From positions 1 through 37,547 of the forward strand of contig NZ_PGCK01000016.1 in assembly GCF_021023085.1 (NCBI RefSeq): a stretch of 37,547 nt of DNA, written 5' to 3'. Each line of letters begins with the position of its first letter. The first letter of the stretch is position 1. The DNA comes from Methanooceanicella nereidis (GTDB taxonomy: Archaea > Halobacteriota > Methanocellia > Methanocellales > Methanocellaceae). Shown in pieces: positions 4,047-32,708 of the stretch. The notes under the pieces were generated by a model, which was given only the letters and a program-made list of their open reading frames with translations, was not told where the DNA came from and ran no database searches. Made by a program: the position numbers and the translations under genes.

Positions 4047-4051
4047 AACTG

Positions 4052-4056: not shown

Positions 4057-4143
4057 TATTGCTAAATGTTCTTTGATGTCAATAAACTGGCATATTAATG
4101 CGAAAGATACTCTGCCGGATTAACAAACTTTATGCTTCCGGCA

Positions 4144-7161: not shown

Positions 7162-7172
7162 ACTGATACCTT

Positions 7173-7853
7173 CTACAGGCCGGTCTGAGGCCCGTTATAT
7201 TCTGTCCTGTTCATCGTGTTCTGGTAATATTTCGCGAAGATATAGGATATGGCCGAGCATATGATGAACACCGCCCACGGTATCGTGACGAAAAGCGCCA
7301 TTGACAGGCCGCCGAGGACGACCATTGACGCAGAGGCTATGATGGCTATGAGATAGCCTAAGGGGTTCTTCGAGATAAGGGCGACGATCTCATGAGGCGC
7401 CACTGCTACCTTAATGCTCCCTGTGTTCGCAAAGATGACCCATGAGGCAAAGAACACGACGCCGAAAACGCTGGACAATATGACCAGCGTCAGTATCATT
7501 ATCGCCGTGCTGATCCATGCAAGATACCCTATTCCAAGGTACTGGAAAGCAAGTACCGGTATAGCGGGCACCATGGCGAGAAGGCCGTATATCGCCGCGT
7601 ATATTAAAAAGATGATCGTCATCCTTATGCCGTTCACGAAAATATCGCCGATACCGTCCCAGTCAGGGAGTACCCCGTTACCCCGTATGATCTCCCGGAT
7701 ACAGCGCGTCATATATCCGAGGAAGAACGGCAGGCCGATTATCAACAGGGATAATGTTAGAACGATGCCCCCGATAAGCAAGGAGCCCATATTGGAGAAA
7801 GCATACCGGATCGAGGAGACCACGGTCTCAAGGAAGTCATCGTTCTTTACCAT
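7173..7853 (-). CDS. DUF4013 family membrane protein
   Basis: A 226-residue integral membrane protein of unknown function. The sequence shows about five hydrophobic segments (roughly 20-48, 75-105, 107-150, 165-190 and 190-212) and the DUF4013-like pattern of a GY-x-x-R-like element with a following LPDW (residues 61-64), seen here as GYMTRCIREI and GVLPDWDGIGDIF. It is the first gene of the minus-strand run leading to the hem genes and ends 11 bases before the precorrin-2 dehydrogenase, so cotranscription is likely. Its upstream region of 138 bases is shared with the divergent M20 peptidase gene and is very AT-rich. Confidence 0.75.
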   Translation of the reverse strand: MVKNDDFLETVVSSIRYAFSNMGSLLIGGIVLTLSLLIIGLPFFLGYMTRCIREIIRGNGVLPDWDGIGDIFVNGIRMTIIFLIYAAIYGLLAMVPAIPVLAFQYLGIGYLAWISTAIMILTLVILSSVFGVVFFASWVIFANTGSIKVAVAPHEIVALISKNPLGYLIAIIASASMVVLGGLSMALFVTIPWAVFIICSAISYIFAKYYQNTMNRTEYNGPQTGL

Positions 7854-7991
7854 TATAATTATCCTTATAGCTATTATCGTAAAATATATTTTACCTGTAA
7901 AGCTTAAATGTCATTTTCGAGATTTATTCATATTCTTTTTAATCCTATTTAGCGCAAACGATACATATTAGTAAAGCCTACGAGAGCGTGA

Positions 7992-9125: not shown

Positions 9126-9170
9126 AGCATCAGTCTCCGGCGTAATTACCAGACGGCCCGAATTTTCGCA

Positions 9171-9647
9171 CTATTTTCTTATATGAGAGACTATATGTCC
9201 AAGTTCCGGTATTATAAGGTCTTTTACGGCCAGCCTTGCAGCGTTCGGGGATCCGGGGATACAGAATACCACTCTGTCCTCAACGACCCCTGCCATGGCC
9301 CTGGTAAGCACGCTTGCGGTGCCGATCTCCTCATAGCTTTTTATCCTAAAAAGCTCGCCGAACCCGGGTATTACTTTTTGGAGCATAGGAGTTATGGCCT
9401 CTATCGTGACGTCGCTTGCCGTCAGGCCGGTACCGCCGCATACGATCACTGCATCGGCGCCGGAATCTTTGAACATCTCCATGACCGTGCTTTCGATCAT
9501 TAAACGGTCGTCCGAAAGAAGCCTGTACAGGACTTTATGCCCTGCACCCTTAAGGGCATCCAGAATGATCTTGCCCGATTCATCCTCGCATTTTTCCGGT
9601 GAGTCAGAGTCGCCGTATTTATCATAGCGTGATGTGCTTACGGTCAA
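9171..9647 (-). CDS. moaB: Molybdopterin adenylyltransferase-type MoaB/Mog protein, start unresolved
   Basis: A MoaB/MogA-fold protein of molybdenum/tungsten cofactor synthesis (adenylylation of molybdopterin). It shows LTVSTSR at the N-terminus, the CGGTGLTASDVTIEAI loop that binds molybdopterin, and GSPNAARLAV near the end. The given start is a TTG (9647) lying in the middle of the conserved first strand, so it is too far downstream. The frame stays open and MoaB-like upstream to 9731 but contains no ATG, GTG or TTG. An ATG at 9735 is out of frame by one base, and its frame ends after five codons at a TGA. A one-base indel near 9720-9731 would join them. Confidence 0.85.
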   Translation of the reverse strand: MTVSTSRYDKYGDSDSPEKCEDESGKIILDALKGAGHKVLYRLLSDDRLMIESTVMEMFKDSGADAVIVCGGTGLTASDVTIEAITPMLQKVIPGFGELFRIKSYEEIGTASVLTRAMAGVVEDRVVFCIPGSPNAARLAVKDLIIPELGHIVSHIRK

Positions 9648-9918
9648 GACGCCGCAAGTATATGATTTCCCCTTAGATCCTTCCTTATGTTTCTCATGAG
9701 AAGCGTTTCCCAGGATATCACCCCAAAAATTTCATCTGTATGAATATATGATTGGTATACGCTGTTTTAAAACCAGCGGTATGTATGCCTAAAATATATT
9801 ATAAAATAAGTATAATATATATGTTATTGATTGCCCGGCCGATAACTGATCCATAAAAAAATTGTTGGTTTGTCTGATATATTAAGGACAAATATCAATG
9901 TATTTACATGCGGCCGGC

Positions 9919-10494
9919 CTATGGCAGCGCTTTCCCCTTCAACAGGGACATATCAAGCTCCATTCCGCCGAGCGTCGCATATACCCCGAGGGCGCGAAGA
10001 CAGTCATTTAATGCATTATGGCCTGCGAGCCCCTTTATCTCAGGATAAATTACTGAAGAGACGTAATGGTCCAGCTTTGCAAATTTTCTGGGCTGCATCT
10101 CTACCCAGTTCAGGGCAGGCTTTTTTAAGCCCGACAGCTTGAATGTCCTCCTTATAAAATATTTATCGAACTCATGGTTCCATGCTCCCGCATACTGGAA
10201 ACCGTAGCGCTCCCGCATGCCCAGGAAGATCTCACAGACCTCGGCAGGGGACGGGGCTTTCTCTATTTCCTCGCTCCTGATGCCGTGTATCATGTACGTG
10301 TCCTCGGCGCGGGAAGGGTCCGGGATGCATATGAGGGAGTACATGCTGTCCAGACATTTTATATTCCTGGTATCCACGTCCACGTCCGCGATCACCATGC
10401 CCAGGCTTATGGCATGATCATCATGGCAGGGACATCCCCTGTTGAATATCCCGAGCCCTGTGGTCTCTGTATCGATAACGCTTAAAATTACCAT
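9919..10494 (-). CDS. DEDDh-type 3'-5' exonuclease-like protein
   Basis: A 191-residue protein with the RNase T/DnaQ exonuclease fold. The four acidic metal ligands and the catalytic histidine are in place: Asp8 and Glu10 in VIDTETTG, Asp110 in WNHEFDKYF, His159 and Asp164 in GHNALNDC. An unusual CPC pair (residues 21-23) sits in a short insertion after the first motif. It is a stand-alone domain without a polymerase or helicase part. It lies divergently to the DNA polymerase D large subunit, 194 bases away, which makes a DNA-repair or proofreading role possible but unproven; an RNA substrate is equally possible. Confidence 0.82.
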   Translation of the reverse strand: MVILSVIDTETTGLGIFNRGCPCHDDHAISLGMVIADVDVDTRNIKCLDSMYSLICIPDPSRAEDTYMIHGIRSEEIEKAPSPAEVCEIFLGMRERYGFQYAGAWNHEFDKYFIRRTFKLSGLKKPALNWVEMQPRKFAKLDHYVSSVIYPEIKGLAGHNALNDCLRALGVYATLGGMELDMSLLKGKALP

Positions 10495-10688
10495 TATTAT
10501 GCACCTGGCGACTGATGGATAATAGATTGCTTAATAGTTTATTAATCATTATGTTTTTAGTCTCGAAAACGATCATGGCAGGTCAACCAGGATCCGGCCT
10601 CTTCGCATCTTTTATCCATAATTTCGGACCTTTTACGGGATGAAATTATTTTTAATTATGCCATAATCTATTTGTTAGCAGGCAATAT

Positions 10689-13600
10689 ATGGATATGAGC
10701 ATGATCCCTAAGACCAGTGAAGCCCAGGAACTCTATTTTAAAAAGCTGGAAAACGAGTTCCTGAAATGCCGGGATATAGCCAATAAAGCCCGTGCGCAGG
10801 GATATGACCCCGCGCTACAGTCAGAGGTACCTTCGGCCACGGACCTGGCGGAGAGGGTTGAAGTATTGATGGGTGTCGAAGGACTTGCAGTCCATATAAG
10901 GTTCTGCGAAGAGAAGATGTCCAGGGAAGAGGCCTCGCTTCAGGTGGCCGCGGACATTGCGGCCGGTCTTGTGGGTAAGTTCGATAAAAAAGTGGACGCC
11001 ATACAGTGTGCGATACGCACAGCGGTCGCGGTTCTGACCGAAGGCGTGGTCGCGGCGCCGCTGGAAGGCATCTCACAGGTATCGCTCGGAAAAAACGACG
11101 ACGGTACTGATTATATCAAGGTCTATTTTGCGGGCCCCATAAGAAGCGCAGGGGGTACGGCAGAAGCGCTGGCAGTGCTTGCGGCGGACTATGTCAGGCG
11201 TAAAGTGGGTTTGGCCCCGTATAAGCCCAGGGATATCGAGGTGGAGCGCTATGTCGAGGAGATAATGCTATACAAGTCCATAGCCAGCCTGCAGTATACC
11301 CCGACTGACGACGAGATACGGCTTATAGTTAGAAACTGCCCCATATGTATCGACGGCGAGCCCACCGAGCAGGAGGAGGTCCAGGGATACAGGAACCTCG
11401 AAAGGATAGAGACGAACAGAGTAAGGGGCGGCATAGCGCTGGTCATAGCGGAAGGCATCATACTTAAAGCTCCGAAGGTCAAGAAGCACGTCGATAAGTT
11501 AAAGTTTGACGGGTGGGAGTTCCTTGATAAGATCATCGCCGGCTCGAAGCCCGCGGCCAGCGAGGGAAGCAAGGAAGATGAGAAAAAGATCAAGCCCAAG
11601 GATAAGTTTCTGGCGGACCTGATCGCTGGCAGGCCCGTATTCGGGCATCCGTCGAGGCCGGGCGGGTTCAGGCTAAGGTATGGGCGTTCAAGGAATACCG
11701 GTTTCGCGACGGCCGGTATCCATCCCGCATCCATGATCATTATGGATGATTTCATCGCGACCGGCACCCAGCTAAAGGTGGAGAGGCCGGGCAAGGCTGC
11801 AGCCATGGTGCCTGTGGACAGCCTTGAAGGGCCGACAGTAAAGCTGTTTAACGGCGACGTAGTATACGTGGACGATGTAAAGTCCGCTATCGCCATTAGG
11901 AACGACATCACAGAAATACTAGACAACGGCGAGATCATATTGAACTATGGCGATTTTCTTGAGAACAATCACACGTTCGTGCCGTCACCATACGTTGAAG
12001 AATGGTGGTCGCAGGACCTGGCTTTAAAGACCGCTGAAAAAGTTGAGATAAAAACCGCGAAAGACGCGTTCGAAATTTCGGAAAAGTACGACGTTCCGCT
12101 GCATCCTGAGTATACATACATGTGGCATGACATCACCACCGAAGATGTCGTATATCTTTCAAAATACATTAGCAAGAACGGCAGGATCGAGGAGGGACAG
12201 CTCATATTACCGCTCGAGCCTCGTTCAAAACGTATCCTGGAATTACTTCTCATCATTCAAAAGGTCAGGGATGAAAAGGTCATCATTCCCCCGGACTATA
12301 CATATACGCTGACAAGGTGCCTTGGCCTGGACACGGACCTTTCGGTAAAAGATAAAAGCCCCTATGACAGCCTTGACGCTCATCCGTGGAATGCGGTATC
12401 GACGCTGAGCGGCGTCACCGTCATGGAAAGGGCGCCGGCGAGGATAGGGGCAAGGATGGGCAGGCCGGAAAAAAGTAAGCTCAGGGAGATGAAGCCCCCG
12501 GTGCATGTACTTTTCCCTGTCGGGGATGCGGGAGGCACAAGGAGGTCGCTGCTGGATGCCAGTTCCTATAGCAAATCTTTAAGCGATAAGATCGGCGAGA
12601 TCGAGGTCGAGATGGGTAAGCGCAGATGCCCGGATTGCGGGGCTATCACCATTAAGAACATATGTGACTGCGGAGCCCATACGGTGCCGTATTACGGGTG
12701 CCCCGACTGTAAGATAGAGGGATTAAAGACAGAGACGTGCCCCCGGTGCGGCAAGCCCACAACGTCTAACGTGATGCAAAAAGTGAATATAAAGGCGTTA
12801 TATGCAAAGGCCCTCAAAGACCTGGGGGAGAGGGAAAATTTCGACATCCTGAAAGGCGTACAGGGACTTATATCTAAAGAGAAGACGCCCGAGCCGCTTG
12901 AAAAAGGCATACTGAGGGCAAAGCATGACGTGTACGTGTTCAAGGACGGTACCATCAGGTATGACCTTAGCGACGTTCCCATCACCCATTTTATCCCGAG
13001 AGAGGTCGGGCTCACGGTCGAGAAGGTGAAAGGGCTGGGCTATGATAAGGACATCTATGGAGAGCCCATAACATCACCTGAACAGGTCATAGAGCTAAGG
13101 GTCCAGGACATAATATTATCCCACGACTGCTCCTCATATCTCATAAAAGTGTGCGCGTTCATCGATGATCTTCTGGAGAAGTTCTACCACCTGCCCGCGT
13201 ATTACAACGTGAGCAGCGAAGATGATCTTATAGGCCAGCTCGTAATAGGGCTTGCCCCGCATACTTCGGCAGGCGTGCTCGGGAGGATACTGGGCTTTAC
13301 GAACGCGTCCGCAGGATACGCGCACCCGTTCTTCCACGCGGCAAAAAGAAGGAACTGTGACGGTGACGAGGATTGCGTCATGATGCTCCTCGACGGTCTC
13401 ATAAATTTCTCATTATCTTACCTTCCGGACCGCAGGGGAGGGAAGATGGACGCCCCGCTTGTGCTTTCCATGAGGATAGACCCCAAGGAGATCGATAAAG
13501 AGTCACACAACATAGACGTAATGGCCCGCTATCCCAGAGAGTTCTATCTGGCAACCAGGGACTTCAAATCCCCGAAGGATGTGGAAAAGATAATAGACCT

Positions 13601-14111
13601 TGTCTCAAAGAGGCTCGGGACTCCTGCACAGTACGAAGGCTTCATGTTCACGCACGGCACAAGCGACATTGCCGCAGGCCCTGCAAACTCAGCCTACAAG
13701 ACGTTAGGCACAATGGAAGATAAGCTAAAAGCACAGCTGGAACTTGGACGCCGCCTCAGGGCTGTCGACGAGAAGGACGTTGCCGAGAGAGTTATAAACT
13801 CCCACTTCCTCCCGGACCTGATAGGTAACCTGAGAGCCTTTTCCACCCAGCAGATGAGATGCGTTAAGTGCGGAGCGAAGTTCAGAAGGCCGCCGCTCAC
13901 CGGTACGTGCCCGAAGTGTAAGGGCGGCAGGATAATACTGACGGTGCATGAGGGGGCTGTGACCAAGTACATGGAAGTGTCCCTGTCCATAGCGAGAGAA
14001 TACGGCGTGCCGAAATATACCATACAGAGGCTGGAGCTGCTGGAACTGTCCATACAAAGCCTTTTCCAGAACGATAAGTCAAAACAGATGGGGCTCGCAG
14101 ACTTTATGTGA
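10689..14111 (+). CDS. polC: DNA polymerase II (PolD) large subunit DP2
   Basis: Catalytic subunit of the archaeal replicative polymerase D; it works with the DP1 proofreading subunit, which is not in this window. The 1140-residue length fits an intein-free DP2. A cysteine-rich zinc-binding region starts at Cys647 ([16 protein letters not shown], then CPDC and CPRCG). The catalytic aspartates lie in NCDGDEDC (889-896), and a C-terminal zinc motif runs from Cys1058 to Cys1077 (CVKC...CPKC). The gene begins ATGGATATG a few bases after an AT-rich, TATA-like stretch (about 10645-10657). A hairpin follows the stop. Confidence 0.97.
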
Positions 14112-14120
14112 GCAATATAA

Positions 14121-14145
14121 GCTTAAAGGGCCTATTCCTTTAAGC
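14121..14145 (+). terminator. Stem-loop after the DP2 gene
   Basis: GCTTAAAGG (14121-14129) and CCTTTAAGC (14137-14145) form a perfect 9-base-pair stem with a 7-base loop, nine bases past the DP2 stop. There is no T-run directly after it, so it could be a 3'-end or mRNA-stability element rather than a terminator. Confidence 0.4.
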
Positions 14146-14381
14146 CTTATGTGTATAGGGGCAATTAATAAAGTGATCAATGTATAACTAATGCCTTAAC
14201 ATTCGCTTATTATCCTTAATATCTCTAAGATCGGAGCTTTGTTGGCGCTTTTCCTCAGGATCCTTTGCCTTTTAAACTTTCATCCCCCTGATTTCCGTAT
14301 GGAAAAGGCTTTTAAGTGCCACAACAAAAGGTATACAAGCTATAATACGTTATAAGGGCTTCACGGTAGGGAAGGCAGACT

Positions 14382-15542
14382 ATGGAAGATAAGGAACATG
14401 GCTCCTGCGGGCCAGGGTTGAGCAGGAGATCTTTTCTGACGATGGCCGGTGCGGTAGGCGTCGGCGCGTTATTGTGCTCACATGCGCCGCAGGTCGCGGC
14501 TGCGATCGAAAATTCGTCGACAAAGCTGGTATGGCTGAAAGGCGCCGGCTGCGGAGGATGTACTGCCTCGTTCTTGAACGGCGGTAATCCAGAGATATTG
14601 TCCGCGCTCGGGAAAATAAAGCTCGACCTGGCATACCATGAAGGATTGATGGCACAGCAGGGCATCTTCGTGGAAGGGGTCGCCGAAAACACCGAAGCTT
14701 ACAATTCAATATTAAAGCTCAGGAATATCATTAACAATGAAAAATACATCCTGGTAGTCGAGGGCGCCATACTCAACGGGCCTGACGGGACCGGAAAATA
14801 CAGCATGATAGGAGGCAGGCCTTTCAAAGACATCTTCAAGGATGCCGCCTCCGGTGCATCAGGCATCCTTGCCGTGGGAACATGCGCGTCATTCGGAGGC
14901 ATATCAAAGGCTTCGGGAAGTGACATCGACGCAAGAGGCGTGGGATACACTGGAACTTCGAGAATAAAAGGCATGCTGGGGGAGCTGGGGATCAATAATA
15001 AAGTCGTCAACGTCCCGGGCTGCCCGGCGCACCCCGACTGGATACTTTTAACCCTTGCCGATATGATCATGGATGCTGACATGGAGCTGGACATGTATCA
15101 CAGGCCAAAAGCGTTTTTCGGAGACTCCTCTGTGCACGATTCATGCCCCAGAAGAGGCTATTTTGACAGGGCTGAAAGGGACACAGGATTTGCCGGAGGG
15201 AAATGTCTCTATGAGATGGGATGTAAAGGCCCGCTGGCACATGCCGACTGCCCGGTAAGGAGATGGAACGGGGGCGTGAACATGTGCACGCAGTCCGGAG
15301 GGCCCTGTATCGCCTGCGTGGAGCCTGAGTTCCCCGATGCGTTCTCGCCGTTCTTCAGCAAGGCGGAGAACAGGGAGATATTTTCCGGCATAGACGTCAA
15401 TACGGGAGCGAAGATAATACTGGGAGCCTCCGTGCTGGGTGCCGGCATACACGCCATAAAGAGGCTTGCAATAGGCGAAAGCTACAGGGATGAGCTCGAC
15501 TCTCGCGAAAAGAAGAAAGATGACATGAAGAGGAGGCCGTGA
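14382..15542 (+). CDS. vhtG: [NiFe] hydrogenase small subunit, Tat-exported (Vht/Vho-like)
   Basis: Electron-transfer subunit of a membrane-bound uptake hydrogenase facing the outside of the cell; 386 residues. The N-terminus has a twin-arginine signal, SRRSFL (Arg15-Arg16), before a hydrophobic stretch ending in QVAAA. Proximal cluster ligands are Cys57, Cys60, Cys168 and Cys214; distal cluster His252, Cys255, Cys275 and Cys281; medial cluster Cys290, Cys309 and Cys312. Cys302 stands where many hydrogenases have proline, which predicts a 4Fe-4S medial cluster. A hydrophobic anchor follows at 345-362, then a charged tail. The large subunit begins one base after its stop. Confidence 0.92.
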   Translation: MEDKEHGSCGPGLSRRSFLTMAGAVGVGALLCSHAPQVAAAIENSSTKLVWLKGAGCGGCTASFLNGGNPEILSALGKIKLDLAYHEGLMAQQGIFVEGVAENTEAYNSILKLRNIINNEKYILVVEGAILNGPDGTGKYSMIGGRPFKDIFKDAASGASGILAVGTCASFGGISKASGSDIDARGVGYTGTSRIKGMLGELGINNKVVNVPGCPAHPDWILLTLADMIMDADMELDMYHRPKAFFGDSSVHDSCPRRGYFDRAERDTGFAGGKCLYEMGCKGPLAHADCPVRRWNGGVNMCTQSGGPCIACVEPEFPDAFSPFFSKAENREIFSGIDVNTGAKIILGASVLGAGIHAIKRLAIGESYRDELDSREKKKDDMKRRP

Positions 15543-15543
15543 T

Positions 15544-17331
15544 ATGGTCAAGATCACCGTAGATCCGGTAACAAGGACATCCGGCGGTTTAAGGGTCATG
15601 ATCGACCTGAACAACGGCTCTGTCATAGATGCGAAATGCTCCGGGACATCATACCGCGGAATCGAGCAGATGCTGATCGGAAGGCAGCCAATGGACTCTG
15701 TATACTTTACCCAGAGGGTTTGCGGCATGTGCAGCGCTTCGCACGCGACCGCATCGGCAAACGCTATCGAAAGCCTCTGCGAGTCCACTGCCGTGATACC
15801 AAAAGATGCGCTCATCATAAGGAACATCCTGAACGGGCTCGCATGGCTGAGGAGCCATATAGAACACCTGTATCTCATCTTTCTGCCGGACATCGCTGAC
15901 CCGATGTACAGGGACATGCTGAAGACGTCCGAAGTCGGGAACAGGGTCTGGAACGAGTTCAATGGCCGGTTCGCGTCCCCGGATTATGCCTTGAGCGGCG
16001 TTGAGTCCGGGAAGGGTTACATTGAAGCCTTAAAATGTATCAAGCTCATTAGCCAGGCGGAGGCCATCCTTGGAGGAAGGTCGCCCCACATGCCGGCGAT
16101 CGTTCCCGGGGGCGTCACGTGCAGGCCGACCGGGTCTGACATTTATTCTCTTAAAGAGTGTTATGAAGGCATTATGGATTTCCTGCAGCGACGCCTGCTT
16201 GGCCCGACCATCACGGTCGACGAATGGCTGAAAAACACACATGAACCTTCGTCGAACATGGATTTCCTCTGGAATAACATTAGCGACCTGACGATGGGAG
16301 AGTTCACCCCTGAAAATGGATGGGGTGACATGCAGCTATTCATGGTCTTCTGCTCGAGGATGGTCAGCAGAGATTTCCTCTCCGGTCCAGTATCAATGGA
16401 CCTTGATACCATAGGCGGGTATCCCCTGTATGACCAGCTAATAGGCTTCCTGAGCTATGGGTCTTTTTACAAAGTAAAGGACAATAGCGGGAACTATAAG
16501 GATGGTTATGTGCCTCTCGACGCGGAACTATCTGATTCTTATGAGATACCTGCAGGGTTTACCCCTGGCAGCATGCAGAACATATATTCGACATCCGAAA
16601 AGCTTGACCCCAACCTTATCGTAGAGCATGTGTACAGCTCGTTCTACACGTATGGCGAGCAAAAAAGCTCAAAGTCGCCGCTGAACGGCGAGACTTCCCC
16701 CCTGACAGGGTCGAGAGACATTGACTACGGCAGCGTCAAATATAGCTTCATAAAGGCGCCGAGATACGGGAACGTGCCATGCGAGGTGGGCCCTCTGGCG
16801 AGGCTCATAAACTCAAGAGAGAAGCTTATCATCGACATCATGAAGATGCTCCACGACAAGAACATGCGCGGGACAAGGGACAGAAGCTATCCGATGACAA
16901 GCACCTATACGAGAGTGCTGTCCCGCATGCAGGAGACGCTGATAGTAGCGAAAATGCTCGGGGACTGGATAGAGAATGACCTTGGCGTTCACTCAGGCGA
17001 AAGAAAATACTATGTTCCGCTGGAGATCAGGCCGAAAAAGACCGGCTCGGGGCTGATAGAAGCTCCGAGAGGAGCTTTGGGCCACTGGCTAAAGCTTGAC
17101 GGATACGGTAACATTGCCAATTATCAGATAATATCCCCCACATCCTGGAACGCATCTCCGATGGATAAGGACATGAAGTACGGGCCCATGGAGCTATCTT
17201 TACTGGGCGTGAAAACGACACCGCTGGGGAACAAGCCGGGCTCTGAGTCGAACCCTACGAGCATTTATCACGTAGTCCGGTCTTTTGATCCGTGTGTATC
17301 ATGCGCTGTGCACACCATAAGAAAAAGCTGA
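15544..17331 (+). CDS. vhtA: [NiFe] hydrogenase large subunit (Vht/Vho-like)
   Basis: Carries the NiFe(CN)2CO active site that oxidises H2. The 595 residues include RGIEQMLIGR (38-47), the N-terminal ligand motif RVCGMCSASH (Cys60, Cys63, His67) and the C-terminal motif DPCVSCAVH (Cys584, Cys587, His590). All four nickel ligands are cysteine, so this is not a selenocysteine enzyme. Only five residues (TIRKS) follow His590, where most relatives carry a cleaved tail of about fifteen. No maturation protease or other accessory gene is near. A GAGGAGG site precedes the ATG, and the gene is co-operonic with the small subunit and cytochrome b. Confidence 0.93.
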   Translation: MVKITVDPVTRTSGGLRVMIDLNNGSVIDAKCSGTSYRGIEQMLIGRQPMDSVYFTQRVCGMCSASHATASANAIESLCESTAVIPKDALIIRNILNGLAWLRSHIEHLYLIFLPDIADPMYRDMLKTSEVGNRVWNEFNGRFASPDYALSGVESGKGYIEALKCIKLISQAEAILGGRSPHMPAIVPGGVTCRPTGSDIYSLKECYEGIMDFLQRRLLGPTITVDEWLKNTHEPSSNMDFLWNNISDLTMGEFTPENGWGDMQLFMVFCSRMVSRDFLSGPVSMDLDTIGGYPLYDQLIGFLSYGSFYKVKDNSGNYKDGYVPLDAELSDSYEIPAGFTPGSMQNIYSTSEKLDPNLIVEHVYSSFYTYGEQKSSKSPLNGETSPLTGSRDIDYGSVKYSFIKAPRYGNVPCEVGPLARLINSREKLIIDIMKMLHDKNMRGTRDRSYPMTSTYTRVLSRMQETLIVAKMLGDWIENDLGVHSGERKYYVPLEIRPKKTGSGLIEAPRGALGHWLKLDGYGNIANYQIISPTSWNASPMDKDMKYGPMELSLLGVKTTPLGNKPGSESNPTSIYHVVRSFDPCVSCAVHTIRKS

Positions 17332-17343
17332 TGAGGAGAACGG

Positions 17344-18096
17344 ATGAAAGCTACCGGCAACAGGCTGATCGTCACAAGGCATACGACCCTTGAGAGAATG
17401 TCCCATTACATCAATATCATTACGCTGACAGGCTTGATCATCTCCGGATTCACCATTTACCTGGGACTGGACTATCTGGAATTCAGCGATGCTTACGCTA
17501 TACACATAATATGCGCAGCCATATTCATATCGGTCAACTGGATAGTCATGCCATATAATGCATTCGTGAGCAGGAACCTCCACAGTTACGTTTTCTGGCC
17601 GCAAGACTATAAAAGGCTTATAAAGATCATAAAGAACTTTTTTACCGGTTCTGAATATCCGCGCTACACTATCTACGATATGGGGAAAAGGCGTTTCGTC
17701 AATCGTATCCATCCCGCAGGAAAACTCTTGATATACTCTCACTATGTAGCCCTGCTCGTGGCTACTGTGACAGGAGTTGCCCTATACTCTTCAGGAGTTT
17801 CCCTGTTCGGCATAAATTTTTCCATATTTATCATAAAGCTTCTTGATATTGTGGGACCCTTAGTATCCCTTTCGGGTCTCGCGACGGCAAAGCTGCTTCA
17901 CGTCGCCGCAGGTTACTGGTTTGTCATAGAGATCATATTGCATGCAGGCATGATACAGCTTGACTCCAGGAAGCTACAGCATATCAGATCGATCTTCATC
18001 GACGGTAAAGAGGACCTGGCAAGGGACGAGACCGCGGAGATCGTCAGCACTGAGGAAGAAGACCGTATACTGGAAGACAAGATCTGGAATAAATAG
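17344..18096 (+). CDS. vhtC: Hydrogenase-associated b-type cytochrome
   Basis: Membrane subunit that takes electrons from the hydrogenase small subunit and passes them to a membrane quinone-like carrier, methanophenazine in known methanogen homologues. The 250-residue protein has four hydrophobic segments (about 23-42, 52-70, 128-150 and 160-200). Histidines suited to haem binding are His21, His54, His133, His186 and His200, the last two in LLHVAAGYWF and ILHAGM as in HupC/VhtC. It starts 12 bases after the large subunit with GAGGAGA before the ATG. The charged C-terminal tail (after about 205) is cytoplasmic by inference. Confidence 0.88.
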   Translation: MKATGNRLIVTRHTTLERMSHYINIITLTGLIISGFTIYLGLDYLEFSDAYAIHIICAAIFISVNWIVMPYNAFVSRNLHSYVFWPQDYKRLIKIIKNFFTGSEYPRYTIYDMGKRRFVNRIHPAGKLLIYSHYVALLVATVTGVALYSSGVSLFGINFSIFIIKLLDIVGPLVSLSGLATAKLLHVAAGYWFVIEIILHAGMIQLDSRKLQHIRSIFIDGKEDLARDETAEIVSTEEEDRILEDKIWNK

Positions 18097-26068: not shown

Positions 26069-26536
26069 TCATGGCTTCCGGGCCATGTTCAATAATGCAG
26101 GAATGATCAATGCTGCTCCGCATCCCATGGCAAATAGAGGGTTACGTAAAACATCGAAGCTATTCAATGCCAGCAATATACCGGTGAGCAGCATAAACGA
26201 CCCCGCGACAAGTCCGGTAATGTCAGGTAAGAGACCCGTCTTTGCCGGACATGCCGGGACCGTCGATAAAGGCTCTTTATCATTTAGCGCCTTTTCTATT
26301 CCCCGCACCCTTTTCTCCAGCGCCGATAGCGGGTCATCGTAATAGGGCGCACCGGATTCTCCCGCGACGAACTCGGTCGGATCATACTCGTCTTCGCCAT
26401 CAGGCCCCGATGACAGCCTGATCTCAAGAGCGCTTACCCTGCCGCTCAGTCCCCTGAATCTTTGCTCAAGGGACAGTATCCTTCCGTCTATATCGCTTTC
26501 CGGGTTCCTGTAAGTATGATCGTTTCCCTGTAACAT
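26069..26536 (-). CDS. Hypothetical coiled-coil membrane protein
   Basis: A 155-residue protein of no recognised family. Two heptad-like helices, LEQRFRGLSGRVSALEIRL (about 23-41) and LSALEKRVRGIEKAL (about 70-84), flank an acidic linker. Two hydrophobic segments follow (about 104-127 and 131-150), ending in a short basic tail. It looks like a membrane-anchored coiled-coil protein with a cytoplasmic N-terminus. The ATG lies only 51 bases from the divergent start of the pilin-like cluster, so the two directions share control DNA and perhaps function; this is inference. Confidence 0.7.
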   Translation of the reverse strand: MLQGNDHTYRNPESDIDGRILSLEQRFRGLSGRVSALEIRLSSGPDGEDEYDPTEFVAGESGAPYYDDPLSALEKRVRGIEKALNDKEPLSTVPACPAKTGLLPDITGLVAGSFMLLTGILLALNSFDVLRNPLFAMGCGAALIIPALLNMARKP

Positions 26537-26587: not shown

Positions 26588-27106
26588 ATGAAAATAAGTA
26601 TGATCCAATGCGATAAAGGTACGGATTTTCTGATCATGAGGCTGATAGTCGTGCTTATCGCGTCCGGGATGCTGCTTGTTATGGCTGCGACGTATTTGAG
26701 CGGGTGCATAACGGACATATCCAGGGGTAACGCCAGAGCCGAAATAAGCAATGTTGTGGGGTCCGCTAAACTGGAATATACTGCAGGATGCGCGGGTCCC
26801 GGCTCGGGAATAGACATAATGGTCACGGTGCCCGAGTGCGTTGACAGGATAGTGCTGGGAAGCTCGCCGGGACCTCTGGAACCGGGAGAAGATCTTGACA
26901 GGGAACCGCAATCGTATTTTATTAAATTTAAGGACGGGCAAATAGAGACGTTTTTCTCTGACGTGCCCCTTGCTTACGGCGATATCGATACGGGAGAAGC
27001 ATATGACAGGCCTGTCGATCTATATCCCGGTAAATATTTGCTCAACATCAGGACGATGAGCGTGAACGGTGATCCCATGGCGGCGATATTCGGAGGCAGA
27101 ATATGA
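26588..27106 (+). CDS. Pilin-like secreted protein 1 (hypothetical)
   Basis: First of five tightly linked genes encoding short proteins with one N-terminal hydrophobic helix. The 172 residues start with a short polar segment ending in DKGTD (a possible prepilin-peptidase KG site near residue 11), then a hydrophobic stretch (about 14-38), then a soluble beta-rich domain outside the membrane. It resembles haloarchaeal pilin-like proteins of the DUF7266 type in layout, not in clear sequence. It overlaps the next gene by 4 bases (ATGA). No ribosome binding site precedes the ATG, so the transcript may be leaderless. Confidence 0.65.
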   Translation: MKISMIQCDKGTDFLIMRLIVVLIASGMLLVMAATYLSGCITDISRGNARAEISNVVGSAKLEYTAGCAGPGSGIDIMVTVPECVDRIVLGSSPGPLEPGEDLDREPQSYFIKFKDGQIETFFSDVPLAYGDIDTGEAYDRPVDLYPGKYLLNIRTMSVNGDPMAAIFGGRI

Positions 27107-27705
27107 ACAAGGATGACTCGGGCTGGGACCTGGGCGTTATAACGGGTTTAGGTATCACTGTGGCTTCCGCGGTTTTATTGCTGGCGGCATTTTGTATCTT
27201 TAAGGGAACGGCTCCGTCGGATACCACGATAGCCCTTCACTCGACAGTATGCGAGATCACAGGGGACATTGACATGGCATATTCTTTAACGATACCTTAC
27301 ACGTATGAGAGATCGTATGACCTGGATAATGTCGATGTCATGATAGCATCGGACCATATAATTGCCATGGGAGCAGGCTGTAAGACTTTCGTAAAACCGC
27401 TTACTGCGAGAGTGTATCCGGCGAAGTGTATTGAAGAGCAACATGTCTTATGGAACGATACGGCAGGGATGAGAGAATACCTGAACAGGACATATGGCGC
27501 TACGGGAACCGATGAGCTTCCGCTTGACGATCATAGCTTTAAAAAATTCCGGGGCATTATGGAAAAAGCTGCAGAAAGCATGATAATGGATCCTTTGAAG
27601 ATATCGGGCAAAGACGGGCTGACCATTGAAAAAACGTTCATCCATGTCAGGGACCCCGGGCAAAATATCAGGAGGGAGGGCTTTGTTTTCATTAGTACGC
27701 GATGA
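27103..27705 (+). CDS. Pilin-like secreted protein 2 (hypothetical)
   Basis: A 200-residue protein with a 10-residue polar N-terminus, one hydrophobic segment (about 12-33) and an extracytoplasmic domain containing several cysteines (Cys49 in STVCEIT, Cys92 in GAGCKTF, Cys108 in PAKCIEE). No family was recognised. Its ATG overlaps the previous stop by 4 bases, and the next gene starts inside its last codons, so it is part of a translationally coupled run. The layout is that of a minor pilin or pseudopilin. Confidence 0.65.
   Translation: MNKDDSGWDLGVITGLGITVASAVLLLAAFCIFKGTAPSDTTIALHSTVCEITGDIDMAYSLTIPYTYERSYDLDNVDVMIASDHIIAMGAGCKTFVKPLTARVYPAKCIEEQHVLWNDTAGMREYLNRTYGATGTDELPLDDHSFKKFRGIMEKAAESMIMDPLKISGKDGLTIEKTFIHVRDPGQNIRREGFVFISTR
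27671..27679 (+). promoter_or_regulatory. Ribosome binding site deciding the start at 27683
   Basis: GGAGGGAGG lies inside the end of the preceding gene. It is correctly spaced for a TTG at 27683, which starts the third pilin-like gene, but too far from the in-frame ATG at 27713 to serve it well. Confidence 0.45.
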
Positions 27706-28135
27706 TAGTGCCATGACAGGCCCCTACACCGACATCCCTGCCGTAAGCATGGTCGCCATAGGCATGATCTTATTCTGTTACATTGTGATGATGGCCTATT
27801 CTTCATACATGTCTGGCGTATACTATGCTACGACAAAAGACGACATCAGGGCAATCGCCAGTATCGTGCTTCATGATCCCGCGATCGCTTTCGAAGGGCA
27901 TCCTGGCGTCCTTGACGCCGTAAGGATGGACGGCGTGAAAGACCATTTTTATCCGGGTATCGGTTATCCCGGCTCAACAGTGACAGCTGTCATAAACGCC
28001 GGGGAATATTCCTGGGAATTCGGAAAAGAGGCAAAGGGAAAGTCGATAAGTTATATGCTGCCGGTATCCGTCAGGCTGAATGAAGCTCGGTGCATTCCGG
28101 GGACGCTCACGGTTACGATGTGGGAGGAGGGCTGA
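27683..28135 (+). CDS. Pilin-like secreted protein 3 (hypothetical)
   Basis: A 150-residue protein starting at a TTG chosen because of the strong ribosome binding site at 27671-27679. An ATG at 27713 would shorten it by ten residues, and the frame is open further upstream. A polar segment with RDDSAMTGPYTDIPA precedes a hydrophobic helix (about 20-40), followed by an outside domain. The R-D-D and D-I-P-A elements before the helix recall the haloarchaeal DUF7287/DUF7288 pilin-like proteins. It ends with TGATG, sharing bases with the next start. Confidence 0.6.
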   Translation: MFSLVRDDSAMTGPYTDIPAVSMVAIGMILFCYIVMMAYSSYMSGVYYATTKDDIRAIASIVLHDPAIAFEGHPGVLDAVRMDGVKDHFYPGIGYPGSTVTAVINAGEYSWEFGKEAKGKSISYMLPVSVRLNEARCIPGTLTVTMWEEG

Positions 28136-29208
28136 TGGACGACCTCGGATATTCCACGATGATGGACGCTATAATGTTCCTGTCCATGGTATCTGTCTGC
28201 GCGCTCATATTAAGCCCTGCGATATTCAGCGATAGAAGGGAGATGTCGACTTCTGAGGCATCTCTTAGAAAGCTCGCTTCATCCACCCTGCTATCTATGG
28301 AAAGCGCGAGAGCGGACTATTTTGAGCACAGGATCATGGGGGACCTGGCTGATGAAATTGCCGGCATAGGTGCAGACTCATACCTGTACAGGGAAATGAC
28401 TAGCACGCTGCTCGGAAGGGGCAGCAGGCACAAGACCGTAATGGAGATAGCCGCCGAGAACGCCGCATGCCAGTTCAAGATCCGGGCCGGCGAGCGAACG
28501 CTGAGGCTAAACCCGTTCACAGGAGATTATGATAGAGCCGCCGTAGAGATGCTGGAGAGCTTTATCTCAGGATGCGTTGATAGCAGGTTTTCATACCAAT
28601 TCACGTTAACATGGTCACCGTTCCCCGGGGTCCCTTTCGAAGGTTCTGTGACAGCAGGCGAGACTGCGCCGAATGGAGCCGTATCCGCAGGCACATATGT
28701 CACGATGCCTTATGCGACAAATATCAATAAAGAGAGCATTAAGACGCTTATCGCCCCGGAGCTCGATGATATTGAGAATAGCATAGAGGCGTACAAAGAA
28801 CACGAAGATGACGATAGGCTCCGGAACGATATTAGAAGAGGGCTGGAGAAAAGCTTAGAAAAAACCGCAGATGCAGCCGTTAATGAAGTATGGCAAAACA
28901 CAATAGGCCGCATAAACGTCAATAATAGCCGGTTCAGGCTTCCCGACGCGTTTTTAACGAACAATACTGAAGAGATGAACTTTACGGCACATTTTCCCGA
29001 AATTAAAGATGCACTATGCTCGATGGTAGTGATGCAAAACTCCCTGAGACTTGACAGTCTTTCCGAAGAGTTGGCCATGGACATAGAGAGCGGTTCGATT
29101 GACGGGAAAAATGCCGGAGAACGCATAGTTTCCTGGTTGTCCTCAATGTACGAGCCTGCGAGGGCAAGGGCATGCCTCTACATATGGGTGGACTCTCATG
29201 TCGCTTAA
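28135..29208 (+). CDS. Pilin-like secreted protein 4 (DUF7284-like)
   Basis: A 357-residue protein with an N-terminal hydrophobic helix (about 10-31) after MDDLGYSTMMDA, and a long, mostly helical extracytoplasmic domain. The ATG at 28135 is preceded by GGGAGGAGG (28122-28130) and shares one base with the previous stop; the frame is open upstream but that start is not supported. The STMMDA-then-helix opening resembles haloarchaeal DUF7284 proteins. The middle (about 225-260) is rich in charged residues and may form a coiled coil. It overlaps the next gene by 11 bases. Confidence 0.65.
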   Translation: MDDLGYSTMMDAIMFLSMVSVCALILSPAIFSDRREMSTSEASLRKLASSTLLSMESARADYFEHRIMGDLADEIAGIGADSYLYREMTSTLLGRGSRHKTVMEIAAENAACQFKIRAGERTLRLNPFTGDYDRAAVEMLESFISGCVDSRFSYQFTLTWSPFPGVPFEGSVTAGETAPNGAVSAGTYVTMPYATNINKESIKTLIAPELDDIENSIEAYKEHEDDDRLRNDIRRGLEKSLEKTADAAVNEVWQNTIGRINVNNSRFRLPDAFLTNNTEEMNFTAHFPEIKDALCSMVVMQNSLRLDSLSEELAMDIESGSIDGKNAGERIVSWLSSMYEPARARACLYIWVDSHVA

Positions 29209-32152
29209 GGAAGATGATTCTGCCAGGGTACCGTTCGCTATCATAGGCATTATTATGATAATCATGTCCGCCGCCATTTCTGCATACCTTATGAAGATGG
29301 AGTCGCAGGAGATATCAAGGGCTCAACTGGACGAAAAGGACGCGATGCTTAACGATGCCATATCTTTCGCCGTGGCAGATATAGACCTCGCGTTAAATTA
29401 TGCGGGCATGTATGCCGAATCCGAGATCGGGTTAAGGCCGGTGGCTAACAGGTCGGCTTCAAGCCCGTTATACGGGTCTCCTGATAAGGTGAACATGGAC
29501 AGGATCAAATACCTGACACATAAGAGGCTTTCAGATCACCTTAAGTCTAATTACGGTAAAAACTCATTCGTATATGGCGACTATGCGATCGAGGCGTATC
29601 TGACCGGAGGATATTCTTCCCTGAACATCGAGCCCGTGAACATGAGCATGGAGCGCATAGTCGACAGCCCTGTCATTAAGTGTGACGAGGAATATGCTGC
29701 ATACTATATCATTTCTGCCCCCGTGAGAATAAACATCAAAGAACAGGGGTCTGACCTTTGCCATATCGAGGACCATACGGCCAGGGCGCTGATAACGTCT
29801 CGCTACCCCCTTATGAAGCAGCTTTGCGAGGAGTACGAAAAGCGTCTCGCAGGCGACGCGTTCTTCATAGACATGACAGGAGCGTCCTTCGCATACACTC
29901 TGGCAAGAGGATATAGCCAGTATGTGACCACCGAGCCGATGAACATCGTTGATAATTCTCATCTGGAGCTCATAGTGAACGGGGCGTCTCTTCTGGAGCA
30001 GGGATTCGTGTTTAACTCCGTCGACCCGTTAAGCCTGGCGTCGTTAACTGTAGAGACCGCTGAGAGCGTTTCGAAGACACCGCAGGACAGGTATGGTCAT
30101 GTGAACCAGTATAACTTTTCAAAGAACTCGATGGACAGCGTACAAAATTACGGAGAAGACACCGAATATAGCCGGGAATATGGTTTTAACGCGGACAGGA
30201 TCATCGATTCCGCGTTCGTGAACGCGCTAAAAGGCCCGGGCATCAGGAATACTATAGATTCCGCATACACTTGCGAGATGCACATAGAGATCAAAAGGGA
30301 TACTAAGGGAAATACAAGCAGCCCATATGTAAAAGAATTACTTGACCGTTCACTATACCCGGACACGGAATTGCCTGTGCTTGCCATGGAAAAGTGGTCG
30401 GTGAGCGACAGCGGAAAAAATGAGATCGTGACACTTGAGTATGTAGCGGATGACTATCGGCTTGCACAATACGGGGGTGATGTATGCTCCCCATTTATAT
30501 CAGGCAGTTATTCGGGCCGTAAGGACGTGAACATGGAGGCCTCAGTGGATAGCTATAAGGAGGCTATCGGCTTTGGCTCGAAGATCGATAACATCCTATC
30601 GGATAAAGGGCTATACCCGGATGGTTCGAGCGCCTTTAAACGCAGCTTCTCGGTAAAGCGGGACATGTGGGTGGAATGCGCTGCAAAGGATGAACTCTAT
30701 GAGCTGTCAGGGCAGCTTAAAAAGGACGTCTCGGTCACGATAAGGTCCGACGGCTATGCGTCGCCGCAGGAAATGCTCGCGGAAGCCTCGACGAAGATGG
30801 AAAAGGAGTTCAACGCACGCTACGGGCAATATCTTCTGAAAGAAAAGTATACGGAAGGAGATCTCTTCAAGACATGCGGTGCAAAATCACTCTTTAATAT
30901 CAGAAGATCCTTCCTTGAAGACATTAAGGCAGGGCTTAACGACTCATCGGCGTCGTCCGCATCTTCCTTAGAAAGTTCGATAGACAGTGAAATGGGAAAG
31001 TACACTGGTTCCATGAACTCCTCTAGCCTTTCAAGAAATGCCGGCGTATCCAAAAATTTCCTCACGAACAACCTTTACATACCTTTTGGCCTGGCGATGA
31101 ACCTGTCCAGCGATAATTCCATGGACGGGAACTATTCATGGAGCGAAAAGGTCACTATTGCAGTGAACCAGAAGCCGGATTATCTGTGCACGGTACCTTA
31201 TGTCGATCCGGCTACCGGTTATGCTTCATATCCGCTAAAAGTAAGGAACATATGCATCTTCACAATACCGTGCGATCCTGACTCTGTGGCCGGTACCGGG
31301 AATGCGATACTCGACGGTATCGATTCCGTGCTTGAAGCTTCAGGGGACGTCTCAAACGATACGGTGTCGGTTAATTCCAGGGAGGTCGCAAGCCGCGTTT
31401 CTATTGATGCGGTATTGATGATGAAGGAGGAGATCGGTGCTGCCCTGCTCACCGATATGGAGATGTGCGGGGCGGTATCCGAAAGAGACATCGATAATGC
31501 CGTTGAGGATTCTATCAAAGGCTTAACTTCGTCAGAGATCATCAAAGGCCTGAAAAACGGCATCATACAGCAGGACATCGCCAGGTCGCTGTCAGACCGG
31601 GCCTGCGAAGAGATCCGTAAGAGGGCAGGCGCAGAAAAAGAATATTGTGATTATATACGAGAAAAAACGCGAATCGTCGTCCTGGATGCATGTGACAGGG
31701 CGGTCTCTTATGCATTATCGGAAAATGGCAGTGCCATAGAGAATAATTTTAAAGATTTCATCGCGGCCGGGGAGAGGTCAATAGAGAAAGAAAGCGTTAA
31801 GGCTGCTTTAAGATCGATACCTATGGGGATGCCTTTGCTCCCCCCGTACGGGTACTGGGCGACGCTTAACGTATGGTACATAGAGGTCGACGGCGAGATA
31901 CCTGTTTTCACGGTCTATGATGCCGACTGCGAGCCTGTGCCGGACCCCCTGTTCGGCCATGAGGCCGTGTCATATACCCGGCAGAGAGACCTGGGTATCG
32001 ACGATGGCTACGGGATACTCGGTTACAATGAGCCGATCAGGTTCCATACTGAAACATCGACGTTCATCCTGGTGCCTCCCGGAAAAGCGGGCGCAGGGGA
32101 CAGAATAGGCGGATGGGATGAAAAAAGTCCCGGCTACATTTCAGCCGGCTAG
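29198..32152 (+). CDS. Large pilin-like surface protein (DUF7286-like), 984 aa
   Basis: By far the largest product of the cluster. The N-terminus, DDSARVPFAIIGIIMIIMSA (6-25), is a short polar segment followed by one hydrophobic helix, closely like haloarchaeal DUF7286 proteins. The remaining 950 residues are predicted outside the cell, with alternating helical stretches, a serine-rich linker (SSASSASSLESS, about residue 590) and a C-terminal domain rich in aromatic residues and glycine. There is no C-terminal anchor. A GGGTGGA site precedes the ATG, which lies inside the previous gene. It is probably a surface or appendage-scaffold protein; the role is inferred. Confidence 0.7.
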   Translation: MSLKEDDSARVPFAIIGIIMIIMSAAISAYLMKMESQEISRAQLDEKDAMLNDAISFAVADIDLALNYAGMYAESEIGLRPVANRSASSPLYGSPDKVNMDRIKYLTHKRLSDHLKSNYGKNSFVYGDYAIEAYLTGGYSSLNIEPVNMSMERIVDSPVIKCDEEYAAYYIISAPVRINIKEQGSDLCHIEDHTARALITSRYPLMKQLCEEYEKRLAGDAFFIDMTGASFAYTLARGYSQYVTTEPMNIVDNSHLELIVNGASLLEQGFVFNSVDPLSLASLTVETAESVSKTPQDRYGHVNQYNFSKNSMDSVQNYGEDTEYSREYGFNADRIIDSAFVNALKGPGIRNTIDSAYTCEMHIEIKRDTKGNTSSPYVKELLDRSLYPDTELPVLAMEKWSVSDSGKNEIVTLEYVADDYRLAQYGGDVCSPFISGSYSGRKDVNMEASVDSYKEAIGFGSKIDNILSDKGLYPDGSSAFKRSFSVKRDMWVECAAKDELYELSGQLKKDVSVTIRSDGYASPQEMLAEASTKMEKEFNARYGQYLLKEKYTEGDLFKTCGAKSLFNIRRSFLEDIKAGLNDSSASSASSLESSIDSEMGKYTGSMNSSSLSRNAGVSKNFLTNNLYIPFGLAMNLSSDNSMDGNYSWSEKVTIAVNQKPDYLCTVPYVDPATGYASYPLKVRNICIFTIPCDPDSVAGTGNAILDGIDSVLEASGDVSNDTVSVNSREVASRVSIDAVLMMKEEIGAALLTDMEMCGAVSERDIDNAVEDSIKGLTSSEIIKGLKNGIIQQDIARSLSDRACEEIRKRAGAEKEYCDYIREKTRIVVLDACDRAVSYALSENGSAIENNFKDFIAAGERSIEKESVKAALRSIPMGMPLLPPYGYWATLNVWYIEVDGEIPVFTVYDADCEPVPDPLFGHEAVSYTRQRDLGIDDGYGILGYNEPIRFHTETSTFILVPPGKAGAGDRIGGWDEKSPGYISAG

Positions 32153-32162
32153 GGACGGCAAC

Positions 32163-32708
32163 ATGGCGAAATATATCAAAGCAGCGGCCATCCTGGTGTT
32201 CGGATCGCTTTTATGCATATTATGCTGTCAGGCCGGGGCCGCCTCCATCAAGGCATATTGCGACGGGACCGAGGCCACGGTGGATAATATCAGTATTGTT
32301 ACAGGACAGAGATTTACCGTAGATGTTCATATCACGGTCTCGAGTGATGCGACTATCTACCTGATGCTCTATGAGCCGGGCTACATAGACGCTTATAGGC
32401 GTGTCAGCGGAGATAAGACAGGCGCAGTTATCGTCTCAAAGTCCGGAGGAGGGGTCACGTCCCGCTACAGGTGGACTCTAGCCCCGAGCGGCAAGTGGAC
32501 TAATGGGACTGCGCCTGTGAATGTGGCATACAAAATACTTGAGGACAGGGACGGGAGCCTTACAAAAAAGCTGACATATGGCGACTTTACCGTTGTGAAC
32601 TATTATATTACCGGCGATAGTGGCAATAATATCGAAATAGCCGCAGTGCTGGCGGCAATCTGTATAGCCATAATGGCGGTATGCCTGAGGTTGTTGCTTC
32701 TGGCCTAG
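32163..32708 (+). CDS. Sarcinarray/MAST-domain-like surface protein
   Basis: A 181-residue protein starting at the ATG at 32163, which gives a clean signal sequence (MAKYIKAAAILVFG, hydrophobic to about residue 24, then AGAAS). The domain that follows (IKAYCDGTEATVDNISI, GQRFTVDVHITV, YLMLYEPGYIDAYRRVSG) matches my recollection of the sarcinarray-family MAST domain of Methanosarcina surface proteins. A C-terminal hydrophobic anchor (about 160-180) ends the protein. An upstream in-frame ATG at 32118 would overlap the 984-aa gene by 35 bases and add a polar leader before the signal, so it is less likely. It overlaps the convergent aldolase gene by 4 bases. Confidence 0.7.
   Translation: MAKYIKAAAILVFGSLLCILCCQAGAASIKAYCDGTEATVDNISIVTGQRFTVDVHITVSSDATIYLMLYEPGYIDAYRRVSGDKTGAVIVSKSGGGVTSRYRWTLAPSGKWTNGTAPVNVAYKILEDRDGSLTKKLTYGDFTVVNYYITGDSGNNIEIAAVLAAICIAIMAVCLRLLLLA

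What the first reader, a model, noticed from the sequence alone, without database searches (positions are those of the whole stretch)
26588..32708. Five coupled pilin-like genes plus a sarcinarray-like protein without a secretion motor
Five consecutive genes overlap by 1-23 bases, and each encodes one N-terminal hydrophobic helix followed by an outside domain, from 150 to 984 residues. The openings recall haloarchaeal DUF7266, DUF7284, DUF7286, DUF7287 and DUF7288 proteins, which usually sit with a TadA-type ATPase and TadC-type platform protein. Neither is present here. A methanogen version ending in a sarcinarray-type surface protein appears to be a little-described appendage or envelope assembly.
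Basis: partly seen in the sequence, partly recalled or inferred. Interest (0 to 1): 0.57.

Follow-up and report, generated by a model that had tools for sequence, protein, structure and literature searches.

The report
Pilus parts whose motor lies elsewhere
A methanogen carries the filament parts of a hair-like surface appendage in one place of its chromosome and the motor that should build it in another; in related methanogens the outermost part seems to come as an exchangeable cassette, which could let cells change what their surface touches.

Summary
Observation confirmed: five overlapping genes (26588-32152), each with one N-terminal hydrophobic helix, plus a sarcinarray gene (32163-32708); no secretion ATPase or TadC on this contig. 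The genes match Pfam DUF7285, DUF7284 and DUF7286 and NCBIfam sarcinarray; gene 1 is DUF7311-like; gene 2 fits DUF7283 only by position.
"Without a motor" fails genome-wide. In haloarchaea the same parts sit in one operon with TadA and TadC. Here that TadA and TadC, with an A24 prepilin peptidase and two more pilin-like genes, lie on contig C8. The C8 ATPase forms one clade (100/100) with the haloarchaeal DUF7286-linked ATPases and has the Cys-rich N-terminus described for archaeal type IV pilus subclade 4F. Over 390 genomes DUF7286 and this ATPase occur together in 135, apart in 11, neither in 244. The cluster is kept in 4 of 4 Methanocellaceae examined; in Methanosarcinaceae the system is split over three loci.
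Best reading: the pilin and tip module of a 4F-type pilus driven in trans.
New: DUF7286 is followed by sarcinarray in 55 of 56 methanogen places, and some Methanosarcina carry arrays of headless DUF7286 ends, each with a sarcinarray gene, resembling an exchangeable tip store. Function is untested.

The parts
26069..26536 (-). divergent gene, 155 aa, coiled-coil plus C-terminal hydrophobic segments; likely counterpart of haloarchaeal DUF7310
   Evidence: DUF7310 only at E 0.089 and hhalign 4.8%: weak. A similar divergent gene with the same opening in 4 of 4 Methanocellaceae
26588..27106 (+). g1, 172 aa, minor-pilin-like, DUF7311-like
   Evidence: hhalign to 17 haloarchaeal DUF7311 93.5%, E 2.3e-7, 133 columns; to the motor-locus pilin B 95.8%; model: helix 10-66 then eight strands, pLDDT 76
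27103..27705 (+). g2, 200 aa, pilin-like; DUF7283 counterpart by position only
   Evidence: one N-terminal helix; hhalign to DUF7283 only 4.5%, E 0.009
27683..28135 (+). g3, 150 aa, DUF7285 (TTG start)
   Evidence: PF23956 2e-8; hhalign 96.6%
28135..29208 (+). g4, 357 aa, DUF7284
   Evidence: PF23955 1.2e-10; hhalign 97.4%
29198..32152 (+). g5, 984 aa, DUF7286, giant protein with one N-terminal pilin-like helix
   Evidence: PF23957 1.6e-53; hhalign 100%, 912 columns
32163..32708 (+). g6, 181 aa, sarcinarray-family surface protein, signal segment and C-terminal hydrophobic segment
   Evidence: TIGR04209 8.6e-22; follows DUF7286 in 55 of 56 listed methanogen places

Best explanation
The cluster is the pilin and tip module of an archaeal type IV pilus of the kind built by subclade-4F ATPases, with its motor encoded in trans. 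Shown: the same families, in the same relative order, flank the TadA and TadC genes in haloarchaea; the orthologous TadA and TadC sit on contig C8 with an A24 prepilin peptidase and two pilin-like genes. Inferred: the A24 peptidase clips g1-g5 before the hydrophobic helix; the C8 ATPase and TadC assemble the C8 PilA-like pilin into the shaft; g1-g4 act as minor pilins that start or cap it; g5 (DUF7286) is carried to the tip by its helix; g6 (sarcinarray), exported separately, docks on the C-terminal part of g5 and forms the contact surface.
For: ATPase tree: 11 of 46 rows (4 Methanocellaceae, 3 Methanosarcinaceae, 4 haloarchaeal DUF7286-linked) form one side of a branch, 100/100; by pairwise score the other ten stand at 234-981 bits against at most 116 for the rest. 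TadC of C8 matches a haloarchaeal DUF7286-linked TadC, E 1e-72, 30% over 520 columns. Cys-rich N-terminus: 10-13 Cys in 7 methanogen members, 4 in each haloarchaeal one, at most 3 elsewhere, the trait given for 4F (PMC4858521 section 12). A24 peptidase next to the motor, PF01478 5.1e-14, also near it in G001 and G002. Co-occurrence over 390 genomes: 135 both, 5 DUF7286 only, 6 ATPase only, 244 neither. Haloarchaeal order DUF7310-7311-TadA-TadC-7283-7285-7284-7286 complete in 10 of 22 loci. Acidic pair plus G/A before the helix in 19 of 20 g1-g5 N-termini against 8 of 41 control single-helix ORFs, most of those 8 being in other pilin-like clusters (the pattern was chosen after seeing the sequences). 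Long helix plus beta domain for g1.
Against: No structure or experiment shows a filament. The g5 model is unusable (pLDDT 36), so the tip role is inference. g1 has no clear solved-structure match: Foldseek none at E 0.001; pilin FimA appears only at Z 3.3 over 102 residues, rmsd 5.3. g2 and the coiled-coil gene match their haloarchaeal counterparts only by position. 11 of 390 genomes have one partner without the other; G225 keeps a full DUF7286 without the ATPase. The 390 genomes are related, so the Fisher value (5e-90) overstates independence. Subclade 4F was assigned by described traits, not by placing the sequence in the published tree. The genome has other motors that could serve the set.
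Confidence: 0.8

Rival explanations
1. A short pseudopilus or envelope-spanning secretion or anchoring complex: the C8 motor inserts g1-g5 as a short stalk that holds the sarcinarray protein at the S-layer, without an extended filament.
For: Largest and best conserved parts are g5 and g6, not a small abundant pilin; Methanosarcinaceae keep DUF7286 and sarcinarray at a locus without small pilins.
Against: A PilA-like pilin sits beside the motor in 4 of 4 Methanocellaceae, and related 4F-type systems are modelled as filaments (PMC4858521).
Confidence: 0.3
2. The cluster is served by another pilus motor of the genome (the ATPases on C1, C5 or C13), not by C8.
For: Makarova et al. argue that ATPase and TadC modules can share or swap pilin sets (PMC4858521 section 11); the C1 motor has no pilin genes beside it.
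Against: Tight co-occurrence with the C8 type; linkage to it in haloarchaea; C5 and C13b motors have pilin-like genes of their own.
Confidence: 0.1
3. A relict: a decaying operon that lost its motor genes.
For: No ATPase or TadC beside it.
Against: All six frames open, coupling and order kept in 4 of 4 genomes with g1-g5 at 33-47% identity, motor present elsewhere in all four.
Confidence: 0.03

Closest known systems
Archaeal type IV pilus variant of secretion-ATPase subclade 4F (Makarova, Koonin, Albers 2016, PMC4858521)
   Same: ATPase with Cys-rich N-terminus, TadC partner, PilA-like pilin beside the motor in Methanocella, coiled-coil protein in the haloarchaeal loci, S-layer-like protein
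   Different: Here the minor pilins, DUF7286 and sarcinarray lie at a separate locus; the paper's sections that I read do not name this gene set for methanogens (its supplements could not be opened)
Haloarchaeal DUF7310-DUF7311-TadA-TadC-DUF7283-DUF7285-DUF7284-DUF7286 operon
   Same: Homologous DUF7311-like, DUF7285, DUF7284, DUF7286 in the same order
   Different: No TadA and TadC in the cluster; sarcinarray added; coiled-coil gene divergent
Methanosarcinaceae DUF7286 plus sarcinarray loci (with cassette arrays in Methanosarcina)
   Same: DUF7286 directly followed by sarcinarray
   Different: There DUF7286 is about 1350-1460 aa, DUF7285 and DUF7284 lie at a third locus, and some carry arrays of headless ends; the window has one copy
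Bacterial Tad pili and R64 PilV shufflon tips (recalled, not tested)
   Same: TadA and TadC type motor; pilus tip protein with exchangeable C-terminus
   Different: No recombinase or inverted repeats were looked for; relation to these proteins by sequence was not tested

Membership tests
Archaeal type IV pilus, ATPase subclade 4F | secretion ATPase of the clade with Cys-rich N-terminal domain | tested here: met
   clade 100/100; 10 Cys before the ATPase domain in the C8 ATPase. Placement in the published tree itself was not possible
Archaeal type IV pilus, ATPase subclade 4F | TadC partner next to the ATPase | tested here: met
   630 aa, E 1e-72 to a haloarchaeal TadC; Pfam T2SSF alone is weak, E 0.49
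Archaeal type IV pilus, ATPase subclade 4F | dedicated PilA-family major pilin (arCOG02981) | tested here: inconclusive
   pilin-like gene beside TadC in 4 of 4 Methanocellaceae; arCOG models not available
Archaeal type IV pilus, ATPase subclade 4F | coiled-coil protein arCOG07564 in the haloarchaeal loci | tested here: inconclusive
   DUF7310 coiled-coil present in haloarchaeal loci; the window gene matches it only weakly; arCOG07564 = DUF7310 is my inference
Archaeal type IV pilus, ATPase subclade 4F | filament of these subunits | not testable with these tools
   needs microscopy or proteomics
Class III (prepilin) substrates of an A24 peptidase | cleavage site before a hydrophobic N-terminal helix, and an A24 peptidase in the genome | tested here: inconclusive
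   shared acidic pair plus G/A in 19 of 20; peptidase present, two in G000; cleavage not tested
DUF7284, DUF7285, DUF7286 (Pfam) | score above the curated cut-off | tested here: met
sarcinarray TIGR04209 | score above the curated cut-off | tested here: met
   77.6 against 45 bits
DUF7311 and DUF7283 for g1 and g2 | Pfam match | tested here: not met
   no Pfam match; g1 is DUF7311-like by profile comparison only, g2 not supported

The most novel reading that the evidence does not exclude
DUF7286 plus sarcinarray is a paired, exchangeable tip unit of an archaeal pilus: in Methanosarcina and relatives one full-length DUF7286 gene is switched at its 3' end, together with the following sarcinarray gene, from a downstream store of headless DUF7286 ends that each carry their own sarcinarray gene. 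This would be a gene-conversion or cassette-switching system for a surface appendage in a methanogen; the window holds the single-copy, fixed form.
Probability: 0.5. Interest if true: 0.8.

Novelty: new variant of a known kind. Interest (0 to 1): 0.6.

Why it matters
It gives several unnamed protein families and the sarcinarray family a concrete machine, predicts which distant motor builds it, and shows one pilus system kept as one, two or three loci in different archaea. If the cassette reading holds, methanogens that live in aggregates with partners would have a switchable tip, which would make their cell-contact specificity directly testable.

Tried and rejected
Rejected: motor missing from the genome. 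Rejected: g1 as DUF7266 or DUF7288 (no Pfam match; DUF7311-like instead). Not supported: g2 as DUF7283. The g5 structure was discarded for low confidence. Foldseek and VIA-align for g1 gave no clear match; the pilin FimA was listed at Z 3.3. A scan of genome contigs with g5 alone found no relative; with the four-sequence alignment it found one record, Methanocella sp. PtaU1.Bin125. Paper searches: DUF7286, 0 papers; sarcinarray, 1 paper with a table row; Methanosarcina with gene conversion, cassette and pili terms gave nothing on these loci by their listings. This covers only the held open library; subscription papers such as Haft et al. 2012 on archaeosortases are recalled, not read.

Archaeosortase A is present in 10 of 10 genomes tested, but the window's sarcinarray protein has no PGF-type end that I could see, so sorting was not made part of the claim.

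Against my own reading: five genomes of genus g13 carry sarcinarray without a DUF7286 match; in the one looked at (G014) the gene stands alone (L105). In the Methanocellaceae the DUF7286 C-terminus is among the most conserved parts, so no switching is implied there.

Full report
What is there. The six genes are real, coupled and at the stated places. g3, g4 and g5 match Pfam DUF7285, DUF7284 and DUF7286 above cut-off; g6 matches sarcinarray TIGR04209 above cut-off. g1 and g2 match nothing in Pfam. The window is contig C16 of a 41-contig, 3.19 Mb genome. Three genomes of its family were drawn (G001-G003); one of them, G003, is Methanocella sp. PtaU1.Bin125 by its identical 7034-base contig, and the lengths of the two others, 3,179,916 and 2,957,635 bases, are those I recall for M. 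arvoryzae and M. paludicola. So the organism is a Methanocellaceae methanogen of another genus.

Conservation. All four genomes (4 of 4) carry g1 to g6 in the same order, with a divergent coiled-coil gene upstream. DUF7286 was found in 13 of 60 relatives and in 140 of 390 genomes of the phylum at 90% completeness or more.

The motor. Contig C16 has no T2SSE or T2SSF match. Contig C8 (locus L032 = C8:134800-154700) has, in locus coordinates, a pilin-like gene 6752-7246(-), TadC 7305-9197(-), TadA 9194-11479(-), a HerA-like ATPase 13053-14252(+), an A24 peptidase 14215-15120(+) and a second pilin-like gene 15150-15638(+). The peptidase scores PF01478 5.1e-14. TadC is weak by Pfam (0.49) but 30% identical over 520 columns to a haloarchaeal TadC. 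A tree of 46 ATPases puts the C8 ATPase, its three family orthologues, three from Methanosarcinaceae-like genomes (f3) and the four DUF7286-linked haloarchaeal ones on one side of a branch with support 100/100. Of 49 loci given, three (L053, L057 and the outgroup L086) returned no ATPase and were dropped; ATPases of the near-duplicate genomes G059 and G040 and matches under about 50 bits were not put in, except that one outgroup. f3 is read as Methanosarcinaceae from genome sizes and the acetivorans control; this label is mine.

Why these belong together. In haloarchaea DUF7310, DUF7311, TadA, TadC, DUF7283, DUF7285, DUF7284 and DUF7286 follow each other; all eight were found in order in 10 of 22 loci, which I had chosen because DUF7286 and the ATPase were near each other (in one, L102, they are not); in the other 12 one or more were missed or misplaced by single-sequence search. 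Profile comparison ties g1 to DUF7311 (93.5%), g3 to DUF7285 (96.6%), g4 to DUF7284 (97.4%) and g5 to DUF7286 (100%); g2 to DUF7283 (4.5%) and the coiled-coil gene to DUF7310 (4.8%) fail. g1 is also a relative of the second pilin-like gene at the C8 locus (95.8%). The ATPase profile separates cleanly: the 4F-type scores are 433 bits or more, the next 189 or less. Taking those as present, 135 of 390 genomes have both ATPase and DUF7286, 5 DUF7286 only, 6 ATPase only, 244 neither. Of the discordant ones, G187 and G391 have broken ATPase frames and G084, G290 and G257 have short or broken DUF7286 frames. The genomes are related, so the count is support, not a probability.

One, two or three loci. 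Haloarchaea: one operon in the loci read. Methanocellaceae: two loci. Methanosarcinaceae: DUF7286 plus sarcinarray at one place, TadA plus TadC at another, and DUF7285 plus DUF7284 at a third. Among 17 genomes given, which include three Methanocellaceae, DUF7284 was found in 17 (in G193 only 26 positions at E 0.0098) and DUF7285 in 15, lying next to DUF7284 in those 15. In G090 the DUF7285-DUF7284 pair is only about 6 kb from DUF7286, on the other strand.

Known kind. Makarova et al. 2016 (PMC4858521; abstract and sections 7, 8, 11, 12, 15 read) describe subclade 4F: ATPases with a variable Cys-rich N-terminus, strongest in methanomicrobia, a dedicated PilA-family pilin with an example locus in Methanocella arvoryzae, a coiled-coil protein in haloarchaea and an S-layer-like protein, and they argue that motors can work with pilins encoded elsewhere. 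The C8 ATPase has 10 Cys in that region and all seven methanogen members 10-13, against at most 3 in the 35 ATPases outside the clade. I therefore file the system under 4F by traits. The supplements, which may list this very cluster, were not open to me. A passage in PMC6491452 gives Haloferax PilB1 and PilB2 as 4C; which Haloferax motor serves its DUF7286 was not resolved, and this is a loose end for the 4F label.

Pilin nature. g1 is predicted as one long helix (10-66) followed by eight strands, mean pLDDT 76 with two sequences in the alignment; the second model scored 68 and the other three 45-48. No solved structure matches clearly. The g5 model is not usable. A shared acidic pair followed by G or A just before the helix is found in 19 of 20 g1-g5 proteins, 0 of 3 sarcinarray proteins and 8 of 41 control ORFs with an early helix; the motif was picked by eye first.

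Sarcinarray as partner. Among 56 methanogen-type DUF7286 matches with a listed place, 55 are followed on the same strand by a sarcinarray match 32-102 bases further on, in 50 genomes; the 56th (G264) has none on its contig (the list of places was cut, so these are not all). 58 of 63 sarcinarray genomes have DUF7286; the five others are all genus g13.

Cassette arrays. In G207, G357, G374 and in G171, G397 and G303, DUF7286 ends without the N-terminal helix, 68-539 aa, lie before sarcinarray genes; in G130 the extra copies are mainly sarcinarray genes. Some of the fragments at contig ends (G397, G303) may be cut. Pfam confirms three of the fragments as DUF7286 positions 772-1000 or 826-1000. 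G374 has two full-length loci: 600 upstream bases 99.2% identical, gene bases 1-2500 100%, 2501-3600 97.5%, 3601-4179 75.6%, sarcinarray gene 70.2%. Such a step is hard to get by drift after one duplication; it points to replacement of the 3' part with the sarcinarray gene. In G357 nine sarcinarray genes are 63-83% alike except the pair formed by the copy next to the full-length gene and the copy at the far end, 97%. This is evidence of exchange in two genomes, not of programmed switching, and no recombinase or repeat was sought. The window genome has one DUF7286 and one sarcinarray gene.

Mechanism. Shown: gene content, order, homologies, co-occurrence. Inferred: peptidase clipping, assembly by the C8 motor, tip position of DUF7286, docking of sarcinarray on it. 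Confidence 0.8 for the in-trans pilus module, lower for each tip step.

Noticed in passing
L106 1956-12425, L107 3415-15905, L108 4074-10353, L115 2602-9879, L109 84-4384, L110, L111: Full-length DUF7286 plus sarcinarray followed by arrays of helix-less DUF7286 ends with their own sarcinarray genes; two G374 copies identical over 2500 bases of the gene but 76% and 70% in the 3' end and the sarcinarray gene.
   Followed up: partly
L105 3734-4402 (G014): A sarcinarray gene alone, without DUF7286 or the 4F-type ATPase; four other genomes of genus g13 also have sarcinarray without a DUF7286 match.
   Followed up: no
window 14382-18096: A Tat-signal hydrogenase small subunit, large subunit and cytochrome b561-type gene in a row; a membrane-bound, cytochrome-linked hydrogenase would be notable in Methanocellaceae, which I recall as cytochrome-free.
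   Followed up: partly
L032 13053-15638: A HerA-like ATPase, an A24 peptidase and a DUF7311-like pilin form a small operon beside the motor; a similar HerA-like gene also lies there in G001, G002 and G003.
   Followed up: partly
L034 662-3546 and L031 12542-15227: Further clusters of pilin-like genes with the same acidic pair plus G/A before the helix, one beside the C5 motor of the window genome.
   Followed up: no
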